From contig NZ_FOFA01000010.1 of assembly GCF_900110855.1 (NCBI RefSeq), forward strand, positions 1 through 64,000: a stretch of DNA of 64,000 nt, read 5' to 3'. Below, piece after piece: positions 1,266 to 61,107 of the stretch (within the stretch, counting starts at the first letter, position 1; every line of letters starts with the position of its first letter). This DNA comes from Microlunatus flavus. Its GTDB lineage: Bacteria > Actinomycetota > Actinomycetes > Propionibacteriales > Propionibacteriaceae. Both the position numbers and the translations under genes were made by a program. The notes beneath the pieces were generated by a model. It made no database searches and was not told where the DNA came from. It saw only the letters and a list, made by a program, of their open reading frames with translations.

Positions 1266-1380
1266 CTCGACGAGGTCGGCGTCCTTCCTGCCACAAGAAG
1301 AACACCAACCCCTTCGGGGCCCTTCGACAGGCTCAGGGAGCGTTCTTCGCGCCCCCTTCGACGAGCTCGGGGAGCGTTCT
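1266..1380. repeat. Dispersed palindromic repeat (right half plus extra unit)
   Basis: The unit CCTTCGACAGGCTCAGGGAG occurs near 1320-1340, with a diverged copy at 1353-1379. The same unit is seen at 51406-51540 and 18889-18907. Positions 1-14 are the left half of the same composite repeat, as shown by matching 1-14 plus 1270-1345 to 51456-51540. The stretch lies between the IS and the end of the mutase gene and has no coding potential. Confidence 0.75.
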
Positions 1381-4928: not shown

Positions 4929-5350
4929 GAGCGCTTGCCGCTCCCCTCCGCAGGAAGTGGTCACTCCCGGTCGCGACACGCCGCGAGCGAGCGCCCGCGC
5001 CTGACCACTTTCGTACGAGACGGCCCTCCCGCAAGCTCAGGGTCGTGGCTCCGCACTCCGAGAGGCTCGGGACGGGGGTGCTCGCGCACGTGCGGCAGGT
5101 GCATCCCGACCAGAGCCAGATCGGGCGCCGGTGCCTGGACGAGGAGCGGGTGACGACACGCTTTTCGTCGTCACCGGCGACGAGGAAGGCATCGGATCAG
5201 AGCCCGATCTGCGTCCGAGCGGAGCGAGGACAGAAGACTCGCGTATCACCACTCGCCCCCCACCCTCTTCTGCGGTATGAATGCGCACAGGTCGGAGCCG
5301 CGGGACTCGAGGAGCCCGTGAGCCGCGAGCCCGGAGGGTGCCATGGACGC
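4929..5350. other. 422-bp intergenic region with repeat elements, no gene
   Basis: Positions 4955-4963 (AAGTGGTCA) and 5002-5010 (TGACCACTT) form a 9-bp inverted repeat that shares two segments with a similar repeat at 10796-10846. The structured element described separately lies at 5117-5234. Open frames crossing the stretch lack codon bias and family resemblance. A GGAGGG at 5333-5338 is the likely ribosome-binding site of the following sigma factor. Confidence 0.6.
5117..5234 (+). repeat. Structured dispersed element, copy A
   Basis: There are three nested helices. P1 is 5117-5126 paired with 5202-5211 (10 of 10). P2 is 5128-5135 with 5188-5195 (8 pairs, one G-T). P3 is 5149-5157 with 5167-5175 (9 of 9), closing the nonamer loop ACGCTTTTC. 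The P2-P3 joint carries CTGGACGAGGAGCG and CGACGAGGAA. The 3' flank CGTCCGAGCGGAGCGAGG is shared with copy B. Copies B (11294-11410) and C (60378-60467) keep the same architecture with different stem sequences. Its function is unknown to me. Confidence 0.75.
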
Positions 5351-10699: not shown

Positions 10700-10902
10700 G
10701 AACCGCCCGGAGCACTCCGGGCCCGAAGCACTCCCCGCGGGGCACGACACCTTCGTCGTGCCCCGCTCGGCGTTCCCGCCGCCTGCTCCGCTCGTCCTCG
10801 AGCGACCACTCGCTCGCGGCGGGGAGTGACCAGTGGTCGCCTCGAGAGCAAGCGGCGAGCCCGCCCGACCTCGGTCGGGCGGGCTCGACCATGCTGGGGG
10901 CC
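10700..10902. terminator. Hairpin-rich spacer after the sugar dehydrogenase
   Basis: There are three hairpins. One is a 12-bp stem GCGGGGCACGAC/GTCGTGCCCCGC near 10736-10766. The second is an inverted repeat at 10796-10846 with arms GCGACCACT/AGTGGTCGC, related to 4955-5010. The third is a perfect 13-bp stem AGCCCGCCCGACC/GGTCGGGCGGGCT at 10858-10885. No T-run follows any of them. The last ends 17 bp before the cupin start and could terminate or influence translation. Confidence 0.5.
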
Positions 10903-11292
10903 ATGGAGCACTTGAGGATCGCGACCGTCGCCGAGGAGAGCGCCGACTTCCGGCGCGTGCTGTGGACCGGGGCGCACAGCCAGCTGGTCAGCATGACCAT
11001 CCCGCCGGGCGGCGAGATCGGCGAGGAGACCCACCCCGACAACGACCAGATCCTGATCTTCCTGAGCGGGGTCGGCGAGGCCCGCATCGACGGCGAGACC
11101 CAGGCGGTCGCCGACGGCGACCTCGTCTGCGTACCCGCCGGGGCGCTGCACAACTTCGTGAACACGGGTCCGAACCCGCTCGTCCTCTTCACGGTCTACG
11201 GCCCGCCGGACCACTCCCCGGGCGCCGTGCACCACACCAAGGAGGAGGCCGACGAGGCCGAGGAGTCCGGCGAGGACGAGCCGCCTGCATGA
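10903..11292 (+). CDS. Cupin-domain protein
   Basis: The 129-residue protein is a single small cupin barrel. The first motif region is GGEIGEETHPDNDQILIFLSGVGEARIDG, with the metal-ligand-like positions H, Q and E. The second is VPAGALHNFVNTG with its histidine. The last 20 residues are strongly acidic. Small cupins can be metal-dependent enzymes or sensors; the substrate is unknown. The start at 10903 is preceded by CTGGGGG. An in-frame ATG at 10891 is possible. Structured element B begins at its stop codon. Confidence 0.85.
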   Translation: MEHLRIATVAEESADFRRVLWTGAHSQLVSMTIPPGGEIGEETHPDNDQILIFLSGVGEARIDGETQAVADGDLVCVPAGALHNFVNTGPNPLVLFTVYGPPDHSPGAVHHTKEEADEAEESGEDEPPA

Positions 11293-11293
11293 T

Positions 11294-11410
11294 CTGTCCT
11301 CGCTCCGCTCGGACGCGGTCCGGGCTCTGACCCGCTGCCTTCGTCGTCGACCGGGGCGACGGAAAGCGTGTCGCCCCGCTCTCCTCCTCCAGGCACCGGC
11401 GCCCGGACCG
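11294..11410 (-). repeat. Structured dispersed element, copy B
   Basis: Read on the minus strand it aligns with copy A over about 118 bp with high identity. P1 is 11401-11410 with 11316-11325 (10 of 10, CGGTCCGGGC against CAGATCGGGC in A). P3 is 11352-11360 with 11370-11378 (9 of 9), with loop ACGCTTTCC. P2 CCGGTGCC/GGCAGCGG has 7 of 8 pairs. The stem bases differ from copy A at several positions but remain paired. It lies in the cupin-icd spacer, opposite to both genes, which argues against it being the leader of either. Confidence 0.75.
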
Positions 11411-11503
11411 GCGAGGGTCGGGCAACAGGCGCGTTCCGGGGCGGCCGGCTCGACGGCACGGGCGCGCAGGAGGCCCGACAGGCTCTCGCGGTAGGTTCCT
11501 CAG

Positions 11504-17936: not shown

Positions 17937-19547
17937 TCAGTGGAAGAAGTGGCGGGCGCCGGTGAGGTAGAGCGTCGCGCCGGCCTGGCGGGCGGCCTCG
18001 ACCACCGCGTCGTCGCGGACCGAGCCGCCCGGCTGCACGACGGCCCGGACCCCGGCCTCGAGCAGGATCTCCAGCCCGTCGGGAAAGGGGAAGAAGGCGT
18101 CGGACGCGGCCACCGAGCCGGCGGCGCGCTCCCCCGCCCGGCTGACGGCGAGGCGGCTGGAGTCGACCCGGTTGACCTGCCCCATGCCGATGCCGACGGA
18201 CGCGCCGCCGGAGGCGAGCAGGATCGCGTTCGACTTGACCGAGCGGCAGGCCTTCCACGCGAACTCGAGGTCGGCCAGGGTCGCGTCGTCGGCCGGCTCG
18301 CCGCAGGCGAGCGTCCAGCCCTCCCGGCCGTCGTGCGCGGCGTCGACCGTGTCGCGCTGCTGCAGCAGCAGGCCGCCGTCGATGCGACGGAACTCGGTCC
18401 CCTGCGCCGGCAGCGGGGCCACGACGAGGATGCGGATGTTCTTCTTGGCCTGCAGCACCTCGACCGCACCGTCGGCGTACGAGGGCGCCAGGATCACCTC
18501 CGTGAACACCTCGGCGACCTGCTGGGCCATCTCCACGCTGACCTCGGTGTTCGTGGCGATGACGCCGCCGAAGGCCGACACCGGGTCGCAGGCGTGCGCC
18601 TTGCGGTGCGCCTCGGCCACGTCCGCGCCGACGGCGATGCCGCACGGGTTGGCGTGCTTGATGATCGCCACGGCCGGCGCGCTGAAGTCGTACGCGGCCC
18701 GTCGTGCCGCGTCGGCGTCGACGTAGTTGTTGTAGGACATCTCCTTGCCGTGCAGCTGCTCGGCGCCGGCCAGGGAGCCCTCGGAGCCCGGCGAGCGGTA
18801 GAGCGCGGCGGCCTGGTGCGGGTTCTCGCCGTAGCGCAGCCCGGTCGCCTTGTCCCACGTCGCCCCGAGCCAGGCCGGGAAGCGGTGTCCTGAGCCTGTC
18901 GAAGGAGTGTCGCCCCCGCTGGAGTCGGTGAGCACGCTGCCCATCCAGCTGGCCACCGCGACGTCGTACGTCGCCGTGTGCACGAACGCCGCCGCCGCGA
19001 GGCGCTGGCGCTGCGCGAGGGTGGTGCCGCCCTCGTCGAGCGCCGCGAGGATGTCGCCGTACTGGTCCGGGGAGGTGAGCACCGCGACGTTCGCGTGGTT
19101 CTTGGCGCTGGCCCGGACCATCGCGGGCCCGCCGATGTCGATCTGCTCGATGCACTCCTCGGGCGTCGCGCCCGAGGCGACCGTCTGGGTGAACGGGTAG
19201 AGGTTGCTCACCAGCAGCTGGAACGGTGCGATGCCGAGCTCCTCGAGCTGGGCGCGGTGGGTGTCGAGCCGGAGGTCGGCCAGCAGGCCGGCGTGCACCT
19301 TCGGGTGCAGCGTCTTGACCCGCCCGTCGAGGCACTCGGGGAAGCCCGTCACGTCCTCCACCGCCGTCACGGGGAGCCCGGCGGCGGCGACGGTCTTGGC
19401 CGTCGAGCCGGTGGAGACGATCTCGACGCCGTGCTCGACCAGGGCGCGGGCCAGGTCGACCAGGCCGGTCTTGTCGTAGACGGAAACGAGGGCGCGCCGG
19501 ACGGCGACGCGCCCGGGTGCGGTGGTGGCTGCGGTTGCTTCGGTCAC
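17937..19547 (-). CDS. purH: AICAR formyltransferase / IMP cyclohydrolase
   Basis: The 536-residue protein catalyses the last two steps of IMP synthesis. The N-terminal MGS-like IMP cyclohydrolase domain contains [43 protein letters not shown] and [15 protein letters not shown]. The C-terminal AICARFT domain contains [27 protein letters not shown] and [12 protein letters not shown]. The connecting loop, about residues 212-223, reads [12 protein letters not shown] and is encoded by a copy of the CCTTCGACAGGCTCAGG repeat that keeps the frame. GTG 19547 overlaps the purN stop (GTGA). Confidence 0.97.
18889..18907. repeat. Dispersed repeat copy inside purH coding sequence
   Basis: CCTGAGCCTGTCGAAGGAG is the same core unit as at 1320, 51419, 51451 and (inverted) 51518. 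Here it lies in the interdomain loop of PurH and encodes part of DTPSTGSGH without disturbing the frame. Confidence 0.8.
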
Positions 19548-51405: not shown

Positions 51406-51540
51406 GAGGAACGCTCCCTGAGCCTGTCGAAGGCTCCGAGGAACGCTCCCTGAGCCTGTCGAAGGGCCTCGAAGAGGTCGGCGTCCTCCGGCTCGAGCAA
51501 CGCCGACCCGTTCCGGGCCCTTCGACGGGCTCAGGGAGCG
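51406..51540. repeat. Composite palindromic repeat cluster before guaA 3' end
   Basis: Two direct copies of GAGGAACGCTCCCTGAGCCTGTCGAAGG start at 51406 and 51438 (32-bp period). An inverted copy CCCTTCGACGGGCTCAGGGAGCG lies at 51518-51540. Between the second and third copies, the stretch beginning GAGGTCGGCGTCCT at 51475 matches the sequence right of the IS at 1270-1345. The array lies between convergent DUF1275 and guaA genes and may double as a terminator. Confidence 0.8.
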
Positions 51541-60377: not shown

Positions 60378-60467
60378 GGGCCGCGGCGGCGTCTGGACGA
60401 GGAGCGAGGGCCGGACACGCTTTTCGTCCGGCCCTCGCGACGAGGAAGACGCCGTCAGGAGCGGCCC
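60378..60467 (+). repeat. Structured dispersed element, copy C
   Basis: P1 GGGCCGC/GCGGCCC pairs 60378-60384 with 60461-60467. P2 GGCGTC/GACGCC pairs 60388-60393 with 60448-60453. P3 is 60404-60416 with 60426-60438 (13 of 13), closing loop ACGCTTTTC. The joints CTGGACGAGGAGCG and CGACGAGGAAG match copy A. The stems differ from A and B in sequence but pair fully. It lies between sigD and guaB, oriented opposite to both genes. Confidence 0.75.
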
Positions 60468-60483: not shown

Positions 60484-61107
60484 TCACGCCGCGACAGGAG
60501 CCTTCCACCGGTCGGCGAAGCGCTCGCGGTGGTCCTCCGACTCCGCGACCAGGCGGCGCAGCCGCGTGAGCGCGCGGTGCTGGGTGACGCGCACGGCGTT
60601 GGCGGTGAGGCCGACGATGGCGCCGACGTCCTCCGCGCTCATCCCCTCGGCGCGCAGGCGCACGACCTGCGCCATCCGCGGGGGGAGCCGCTCGAGGAGG
60701 GCGAGCGCCGCCTCGACGTCGGAGCGCGCCATCGTCTGCTGCTCGGGGTCGAGCGAGGGCTCGGCCTGCTCCGGCAGCTCCTCGACGACCTGGAACGGCG
60801 TACGGGCGTAGCGGCGCTGGGCGTCGGCGACCTTGTTGGAGGCGATCGCGTAGACGAGGGCCGCGAAGGGCGCGCCCTGGTCCTGGTAGCGCGGCAGGAC
60901 GTCGACCACGGCGAGGCAGACCTCCTGGGTCACGTCCTCGGCCACCTCGACGCCACCGCTGTAGGTCGCCAGCCGGGCGCGGCAGTAGCGGTGCACCGCC
61001 TTGCGCACGGCGGCGATGAGCTGGTTGAGCGCATGGGCCTCACCGGCGCGAGCACGCGCCACGAGGTCGTGGTCAGAGAGAGCCTGGCCGAGATCCGTGT
61101 TCGTCAC
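60484..61107 (-). CDS. sigD: Sigma factor, SigD-like
   Basis: The 207-residue protein has region 2 as LVARARAGEAHALNQLIAAVRKAVHRYCRARL, VAEDVTQEVCLAVVDVLPRYQDQGAPFAALVYAIASNKVADAQRR. Region 4 is LERLPPRMAQVVRLRAEGMSAEDVGAIVGLTANAVRVTQHRALTRLRRLV. It is similar in context to mycobacterial sigD, which also lies near guaB2 and groEL1. GTG 61107 follows GGAGTCCTCTC. TTGACA on the minus strand at 61301-61296 could be its -35 element. No adjacent anti-sigma gene is present. Confidence 0.88.
   Translation of the reverse strand: MTNTDLGQALSDHDLVARARAGEAHALNQLIAAVRKAVHRYCRARLATYSGGVEVAEDVTQEVCLAVVDVLPRYQDQGAPFAALVYAIASNKVADAQRRYARTPFQVVEELPEQAEPSLDPEQQTMARSDVEAALALLERLPPRMAQVVRLRAEGMSAEDVGAIVGLTANAVRVTQHRALTRLRRLVAESEDHRERFADRWKAPVAA

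What the first reader, a model, noticed from the sequence alone, without database searches (positions are those of the whole stretch)
5117..5234. Dispersed structured element with covarying stems: copy A
Three copies in 64 kb (5117-5234, 11294-11410 minus, 60378-60467) share the same nested helices. The outer stem is CAGATCGGGC/GCCCGATCTG in A, CGGTCCGGGC/GCCCGGACCG in B and GGGCCGC/GCGGCCC in C. The inner stem ends are likewise different but fully paired, and the apical nonamer ACGCTTTYC plus joints CTGGACGAGGAG and CGACGAGGAA are kept. Stem sequence changes that preserve pairing indicate selection for structure. This could be a non-coding RNA, a REP-like mobile element handled by a transposase, or a protein-binding fold. 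I know of no name for it.
Basis: partly seen in the sequence, partly recalled or inferred. Interest (0 to 1): 0.82.

Follow-up and report, generated by a model that had tools for sequence, protein, structure and literature searches.

The report
Mobile DNA hairpins beside stop codons
Some bacteria of one actinobacterial genus carry dozens of copies of a ~140-base self-folding DNA element that often sits right behind a gene's stop codon and keeps its fold while its sequence changes; it is probably a miniature mobile element whose moving enzyme is unknown.

Summary
The three copies belong to a large family: at least 60 in the window's genome, matches in 13 of 20 genomes of its genus, 0 of 177 other genomes of the family, no Rfam match. 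Covariation is overwhelming (80 two-sided changes in 15 copies; 0 of 500 shuffles as high).

The element is about 137 bp: CCCGACC, a nested hairpin with a G.A internal loop, a small GCGNAGC hairpin, tail AGAAGACACG.

Best explanation: non-autonomous REP/MITE-like mobile DNA whose conserved fold acts as single-stranded DNA rather than RNA: dispersal, empty sites, hairpin-deleted remnants, no conserved promoter, few G.U pairs (2.1-2.7% against 14.1% in RNase P, 7.1% in tRNA). In 41 convergent-gap copies the 3' end lies a median 6 nt from an antisense stop codon, the 5' end 45 nt from the other gene; element-free gaps measure 46 nt, so insertion seems to occur at the stop codon.

No Y1 transposase in 20 genus genomes; TIRs, GTAG/CGTC tags, attC cores and target duplications not found. 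Mobilising enzyme unknown. New variant of a known kind.

The parts
5105..5241 (+). copy A, whole element (CCCGACC ... tail AGAAGACTCG)
   Evidence: CM hit 5112-5233, 133.5 bits; ends from the logos of copies
5117..5126 (+). copy A outer stem P1, 5' arm CAGATCGGGC (3' arm 5202-5211)
5128..5136 (+). copy A stem P2, 5' arm CCGGTGCCT (3' arm 5187-5195)
5137..5148 (+). copy A, 5' side of the purine-rich internal loop (3' side 5176-5186): G.A mismatches around two isolated covarying pairs
5149..5175 (+). copy A stem P3 (5149-5157 / 5167-5175) with loop ACGCTTTTC (5158-5166)
5213..5231 (+). copy A small hairpin P4 GTCC-GA-GCGGAGC-GA-GGAC
11294..11422 (-). copy B from CCCGACC (11422) to the model end; the stop codon (11290-11292) of the + strand gene 10891-11292 follows directly
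   Evidence: CM hit 11294-11415, 122.1 bits
60371..60491 (+). copy C, divergent subtype without P4; 3' end overlaps the stop codon (60484-60486) of the predicted - strand gene there
   Evidence: CM hit 76.0 bits; absent from the syntenic sites of G003 and G015, native stop kept

Best explanation
A family of non-autonomous miniature mobile DNA elements (REP/MITE-like, about 137 bp, a long class of about 157-171). One strand folds, when single-stranded (replication fork, transcription bubble or a transposition intermediate), into P1-P2-G.A internal loop-P3 plus the small GCGNAGC hairpin P4, and that fold is what the spreading machinery recognises. SHOWN: family, copy number, genus restriction within what was searched, structure-preserving change among paralogues and at the same locus in related genomes, presence/absence at orthologous loci, hairpin-deleted remnants, and frequent placement of the 3' tail at the native stop codon of an antisense gene. 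INFERRED: the fold acts as DNA; insertion is directed to gene ends rather than only tolerated there; an unidentified trans-acting enzyme (not a Y1/RAYT type detectable by Pfam) moves it. After insertion copies may also serve as 3'-end structures or terminators, a side effect rather than the reason for spread.
For: Copies: 60 in G000, 43 in G003, 43 in G018, 53 in G019, 76 in G001; 13 of 20 genus genomes. Unlinked copies up to 95% identical; a 92% pair has flanks at background (0.62 and 0.65 against a median of 0.6). Empty sites: C and the C4:98824 copy absent from both G003 and G015 with flanking genes kept. Structure: 93.3% of cells paired, 362 two-sided changes in 57 copies, 0 of 500 shuffles (alignment fitted to the model). 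DNA rather than RNA: G.U 2.1-2.7% of standard pairs against 14.1% (RNase P, n=9) and 7.1% (tRNA, n=11); one-sided:two-sided changes 18:362 and 26:439 against 42:68 in RNase P. In 29 syntenic pair comparisons: 146 compensated double changes, 31 single changes via G.T, 44 breaking. P4: GCGNAGC in 104 of 117; flanking mismatches GA/GA 63, GGA/GGA 25, mixed 3. No conservation upstream of about -8. Placement: element-bearing gaps 47 convergent, 37 tandem, 12 divergent, against 195, 768, 232 without (p 3e-14); of 54 convergent copies, the 41 with both distances under 200 have the model's 3' end a median 6 nt from the antisense stop codon and the 5' end 45 nt from the other gene, 36 of 41 closer on the 3' side; empty convergent gap 46. 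Opposite orientation in the same gap in different species in 12 pair comparisons at five gaps.
Against: No enzyme, no terminal inverted repeats, no target duplication found. Many copies are old: 29 syntenic pair comparisons; median paralogue identity 0.71. A and B give no clean empty site: in relatives lacking them neighbouring sequence is missing too. G.T mismatches exceed A.C ones (93 against 38), so some wobble tolerance or mutational bias exists; with MAFFT plus RNAalifold alone one set gives 5.6% G.U, close to tRNA. The sense strand folds better under RNA parameters too (93 of 97; DNA 88 of 97), so energy does not separate DNA from RNA. The stop codon rule is not universal: 30 of 111 copies have a sense gene on the 3' side, and in 13 divergent copies the 3' end is a median 14 nt from a predicted start codon. 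Hugging gene ends could be survivor bias. The G.U control rests on one RNA from nine genomes and 11 tRNAs.
Confidence: 0.66

Rival explanations
1. A structured cis-acting RNA family (3'-UTR element) that acts after transcription, for example as a terminator, an RNase block or a protein-binding 3' end for convergent gene pairs, and has been duplicated around the genome.
For: Strong covariation; location downstream of genes, convergent gaps over-represented; 71 of 112 copies have a sense-strand gene upstream whose read-through RNA would carry the folding strand; many copies kept at the same locus in related species (29 syntenic pair comparisons); copies between rplK and rplA in three genomes.
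Against: Few G.U pairs against RNase P and tRNA; opposite orientations in the same gap between species (12 pair comparisons at five gaps), odd for a cis-acting RNA; no conserved upstream promoter; no U tract in the conserved ends; the folding strand is antisense to the gene on its 3' side in 81 of 111 copies.
Confidence: 0.22
2. A plain inverted repeat whose arms are kept alike by DNA-level arm-to-arm correction (template switching or hairpin gene conversion), with no selection on the fold.
For: Two-sided changes far exceed one-sided ones, as arm correction would give; hairpin-deleted derivatives exist.
Against: Specific unpaired motifs are conserved (ACGCTTTTC-like apex in the short class, G.A loops, P4 with GA/GA or GGA/GGA switching together); isolated pairs inside the G.A loop covary while neighbouring mismatches stay, which arm correction would erase.
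Confidence: 0.07
3. MITE of a DDE insertion sequence in the same genomes.
For: Size, dispersal, intergenic placement.
Against: Outermost 20 nt are not inverted repeats (match 0.42, mixed-copy control 0.41); no target duplication in 83 lone copies (best 3-mer offset 11, permuted maximum 11). DDE transposases were not searched for.
Confidence: 0.05

Closest known systems
REP / REPIN elements (GTAG superfamily) with RAYT (TnpA-REP, Y1) transposases
   Same: Small folded repeats, many copies, intergenic, next to gene 3' ends; GTAG termini often provide the stop codon of the neighbour (PMC3733652, section on genome distribution read).
   Different: About 137 bp with three nested stems plus a second hairpin, against 20-40 bp; no GTAG end; no Y1_Tnp in 20 genomes; only the 3' end hugs a stop codon, whereas that section reports convergent REPs within 20 bp of both genes.
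CGTC-tagged REPs
   Same: Repeats without a dedicated transposase, between convergent and unidirectional genes (PMC3733652, abstract and passages).
   Different: CGTC in the first 14 nt in 9 and in the last 14 nt in 5 of 113 copies; the words 'actinobacteria' and 'streptomyces' do not occur in that paper's text.
MIRU (mycobacterial interspersed repetitive units)
   Same: Actinobacterial mobile-looking repeats that insert at gene boundaries with little effect on the gene (one passage of PMC12548453).
   Different: By that passage MIRUs insert at start codons and carry an ORF coupled to the gene; here most 3' neighbours are antisense genes met at the stop codon, and the element is strongly folded.
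MITEs / small mobile sequences (RU, Correia, ERIC type; names recalled, RU and MITE also in the listing)
   Same: Non-autonomous, dispersed, can fold.
   Different: No terminal inverted repeats or target duplication found.
d(GCGNAGC) DNA mini-hairpins and tandem sheared G.A motifs (recalled, not from a call)
   Same: P4 has C(GNA)G with N = G 84, A 15, C 5, flanked by GA/GA or GGA/GGA.
   Different: Recalled as biophysics of short oligonucleotides; here part of a dispersed element, and no structure was measured.

Membership tests
REP/REPIN with RAYT | Y1 (PF01797) transposase in the carrier genome | tested here: not met
   0 of 20 genus genomes; control rings in 5 of 14
REP/REPIN with RAYT | GTAG at one end | tested here: not met
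   0 of 113 in the first 14 nt, 1 of 113 in the last 14; reverse complement CTAC 4 and 2
REP/REPIN with RAYT | dispersed, many copies, intergenic, folded | tested here: met
CGTC REP | CGTC at one end | tested here: not met
   9 and 5 of 113 (reverse complement GACG 11 and 13), not a fixed end
MITE | terminal inverted repeats | tested here: not met
   median 0.42 against 0.41 in mixed-copy control
MITE | target-site duplication | tested here: not met
   83 lone copies: best 3-mer offset 11 (permuted maximum 11), best 4-mer 4 (permuted maximum 5); an earlier scan of 113 copies with tandem ones showed up to 8 against 1.1, gone without them
MIRU | inserted at start codons with an ORF in the repeat | tested here: not met
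   3' neighbour antisense in 81 of 111, 58 of these within 30 bp of its stop codon; 5 of 117 copies overlap a predicted gene; but 13 divergent copies lie near predicted start codons
Rfam RNA family | reaches gathering score of a family | tested here: not met
   0 matches in the window; at E up to 5 on three loci only five weak matches far below gathering score, one of them over copy C (antisense, 21.4 of 65.5 bits)
integron attC | paired core sites RYYYAAC / GTTRRRY (motif recalled) | tested here: not met
   0 of 113
mobile DNA element in general | occupied and empty sites at orthologous loci | tested here: met
   C and C4:98824 empty in G003 and G015, flanking genes kept
mobile DNA element in general | observed movement | not testable with these tools
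   needs strains or culture
retro-element moved by a reverse transcriptase | RT present in carriers | tested here: not met
   RVT_1 in 12 of 20 genomes but 0 in G000, which has at least 60 copies, and present in five of the seven element-free genomes
IS91-type (Y2) elements | Y2_Tnp in carriers | tested here: inconclusive
   0 of 20, but no control genome rang either

The most novel reading that the evidence does not exclude
A new class of single-stranded-DNA mobile element that inserts directionally at stop codons, is recognised through a fold held together by tandem sheared G.A pairs and a GNA-loop mini-hairpin rather than by sequence, and is moved by an enzyme unrelated to Y1/RAYT transposases.
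Probability: 0.25. Interest if true: 0.78.

Novelty: new variant of a known kind. Interest (0 to 1): 0.52.

Why it matters
If right, it adds an actinobacterial, RAYT-free member to the small folded mobile DNAs, with an unusually elaborate and strand-specific fold and a clear insertion tendency (antisense, at the stop codon). It poses a sharp question: what recognises a stop codon or gene end at DNA level, and which enzyme reads a G.A-rich DNA hairpin? It also suggests a way to tell DNA folds from RNA folds by G.U depletion against an RNA control in the same genomes; without that, strong covariation would have been taken as proof of a non-coding RNA.

Tried and rejected
Rfam at gathering and E-value thresholds: nothing convincing. 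Y1 transposase: not found. Reverse transcriptase: does not track the element. Y2 transposase: control silent, so nothing can be said. Plasmids and phages: no match to one copy at blastn sensitivity. An autonomous copy with a gene between half-elements: in 1.47 Mb of fetched sequence the two half-element patterns fell outside CM hits only six times, all looking like coding sequence by eye; six P4 pieces lay outside CM hits, three of them behind neighbouring copies. Partner gene next to the element: recurrent neighbours (at most the 45 largest clusters were printed) come mainly from orthology or clustered copies, plus a few protein families that recur at non-orthologous places; by eye none is a mobility enzyme, and no family search was run on them except on the two ribosomal protein genes. 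Target duplications and terminal inverted repeats: none. Pattern scan of genome contigs gave 43 stretches; I read two (L019, L047); by titles seven come from Propionibacteriaceae or Friedmanniella, and I took the other 36, by taxon only, as chance hits of a gapped pattern. DDE transposases, recombinases and other enzyme families were not searched for in the genus. Correction made on rechecking: the remnant at G003:248904 lies behind the stop codon of a different gene (8930-10246 in L109) from the one next to copy B, so it is not copy B's counterpart.

Full report
OBSERVATION. The three copies are present as described and fold as described. The window alone would not be convincing: with two mismatches the apical pattern is expected 1.35 times by chance. 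The genome settles it: 18 exact matches of ACACGCTTTYCGT against 0 for the reversed pattern.

FAMILY. A covariance model from 15 copies finds at least 60 copies in the window's genome (4.79 Mb, 26 contigs) and matches in 13 of 20 genomes of the same genus; seven have none (150 candidates scored per genome, so counts are lower bounds). Of 197 genomes of the family, 13 have matches, all in this genus, 0 of 177 outside it. Of 394 genomes of the class, 2 match, both in the genus. Both wide searches used stricter filters and scored only 18 and 9 candidates per genome, so weak or distant relatives could be missed.

ANATOMY. In the logos of 113 copies of over 100 nt, conservation runs from CCCGACC (-7 to -1) to a tail AGAAGACACG and falls to background outside about -8 and +10. 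Between lie P1 (10 bp), P2 (9 bp), a purine-rich internal loop with G.A mismatches around two isolated pairs, P3, and in the short class an apex of the ACGCTTTTC type; then the small hairpin P4. Of 57 copies read in the window's genome, 43 are 110-130 nt in model length, 11 are 138 nt or more, with a longer variable apex, and 3 are shorter. P4 holds GCGNAGC in 104 of 117 copies, N being G 84, A 15, C 5; its flanking mismatches are GA/GA in 63, GGA/GGA in 25 and mixed in 3. From memory, C(GNA)G and tandem G.A are known stable DNA motifs. Some of the 13 copies without GCGNAGC, such as L159:3792, can instead form a tandem-GA extension of the outer stem (by eye).

COVARIATION. On A1, aligned by MAFFT without structure: 87.5% cells paired, 80 two-sided changes, shuffles 29.8, 0 of 500 as high; sliding partners by 1-3 columns drops pairing to 36-46%. 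On 57 copies fitted to the model: 93.3% paired, 362 two-sided changes, 0 of 500. The isolated pairs inside the G.A loop flip C:G to G:C. Shuffles ignore relatedness; R-scape was not available. At syntenic loci in different genomes (29 same-orientation pair comparisons, not independent): 146 compensated double changes, 31 single changes through G.T, 44 single changes that break the pair, 28 other double changes.

DNA OR RNA. G.U makes 2.1-2.7% of standard pairs in the elements, 14.1% in RNase P of nine genus genomes and 7.1% in 11 tRNAs; one-sided to two-sided changes are 18:362 and 26:439 against 42:68 in RNase P. MAFFT plus RNAalifold alone gives 2.5% and 5.6% for the two sets. Against the DNA reading, G.T exceeds A.C (93:38), and the sense strand is the better folder under both RNA (93 of 97) and DNA (88 of 97) parameters. 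I conclude DNA more likely than RNA, not proven.

PLACEMENT. Of 117 copies, 5 overlap a predicted gene (own gene finder). Element-bearing gaps: 47 convergent, 37 tandem, 12 divergent; gaps without: 195, 768, 232 (p 3e-14). The gene on the 3' side is antisense in 81 and sense in 30 of the 111 copies that overlap no predicted gene and have a 3' neighbour; 58 of the 81 lie within 30 bp. Of 54 copies between convergent genes, 41 have both distances under 200: their model end is a median 6 nt from the antisense stop codon (so the 8-10-nt tail usually overlaps it), their 5' end is 45 nt from the other gene, 36 of 41 are closer on the 3' side, and element-free convergent gaps have a median of 46. The old gap thus seems to lie intact on the 5' side. 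In tandem context antisense copies have a median 3' distance of 14 to the upstream gene's stop; sense copies show no such hugging (60 and 56). In 13 divergent copies the 3' end is a median 14 nt from a predicted start codon, so the rule is 'gene edge', mostly but not only stop codons. Where syntenic relatives could be read, the native stop codon is kept: copy C, G003:141307 and the remnant at C4:127471. In 12 pair comparisons at five gaps the same gap holds copies in opposite orientation in different species.

MOBILITY. Copy C and the copy at C4:98824 are absent from both G003 and G015 with flanking genes kept. Copy A is shared with G015; in G003 it is missing together with about 1.5 kb. Copy B is missing from both relatives together with its neighbour gene. 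So A and B do not give clean empty sites. Unlinked copies reach 95% identity; that pair also shares its 5' flank (0.93) because both follow another copy's tail, while the next unlinked pair of that rank (92%) has background flanks. Tandem arrays occur: five copies 135 bp apart in G011, two 126 bp apart in G000. Remnants without the long inner hairpin: C4:132079 (P1 and P4 kept), C4:127471 and G003:248904 (P4 and tail kept), the latter two directly behind stop codons.

PARTNER. None found. Y1_Tnp 0 of 20 with a working control; RVT_1 does not track the element; Y2_Tnp inconclusive; other enzyme families not searched. No autonomous copy in 1.47 Mb. No match in plasmids or phages.

COMPARISON WITH THE KNOWN. 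It works like a REP: PMC3733652 (abstract, passages and the genome-distribution section seen) reports REPs within 20 bp of the 3' ends of both convergent genes, GTAG termini that provide stop codons, and CGTC REPs without a dedicated transposase. It is not a member by tag or transposase. MIRUs (one passage of PMC12548453) insert at start codons. The other papers were seen only in search listings; none of those listings names this element. Only openly licensed full texts are held, so absence from print is not shown.

VERDICT. A real, genus-restricted family (within what was searched) of folded miniature DNA elements that I could not find described; new variant of the REP/MITE kind. Family and fold are near certain (about 0.95), mobility likely (0.85), DNA-level action probable (0.65), targeting of gene ends rather than survivor bias plausible (0.6), partner enzyme unknown. 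On rechecking, confidence in the main reading was lowered from 0.68 to 0.66 and that in the RNA rival raised from 0.20 to 0.22, because copies A and B turned out not to give clean empty sites and divergent copies hug start codons.

Noticed in passing
window 1321-1371, 18889-18905, 51417-51535: A second dispersed repeat, CCTTCGACARGCTCAGG type: 9 matches with up to 3 mismatches in the window against 0.09 expected; also seen in C4 near 117600 and in G015.
   Followed up: no
L146:1757-1871, L186:4231-4349, L200:4079-4197: Element copies lie between the genes of ribosomal proteins L11 and L1 (Pfam PF00298/PF03946 and PF00687) in three genomes, antisense to both, only 50-63% identical to each other.
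   Followed up: partly
L125:8480-9135 (G011): Five head-to-tail copies at a 135-bp period, followed by repeats of a tail piece of the type AGCACAGCGGAGCGAGGACAGAA.
   Followed up: partly
L160, L163-L168, L141:1886, L142:1306, L159:15997: Long class (11 of 57 copies read in the window's genome): the apical loop is replaced by a variable, often self-complementary extension.
   Followed up: partly
L142:7860-8360, L168:3730-3822, L145:15734: Truncated 3' parts of the element repeat in tandem beside full copies, some joined after a tail such as AAGACACG; the patterns used found no convincing stray 5' halves.
   Followed up: partly
G003 and G015 sites syntenic to window 10700-11500: The region at copy B's site in G003 and G015 holds an inverted pair of GGTAGGTTGCGG-like sequences; in the window the motif is near chance (12 against 5.0 expected, 1 of 100 shuffles as high).
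   Followed up: partly
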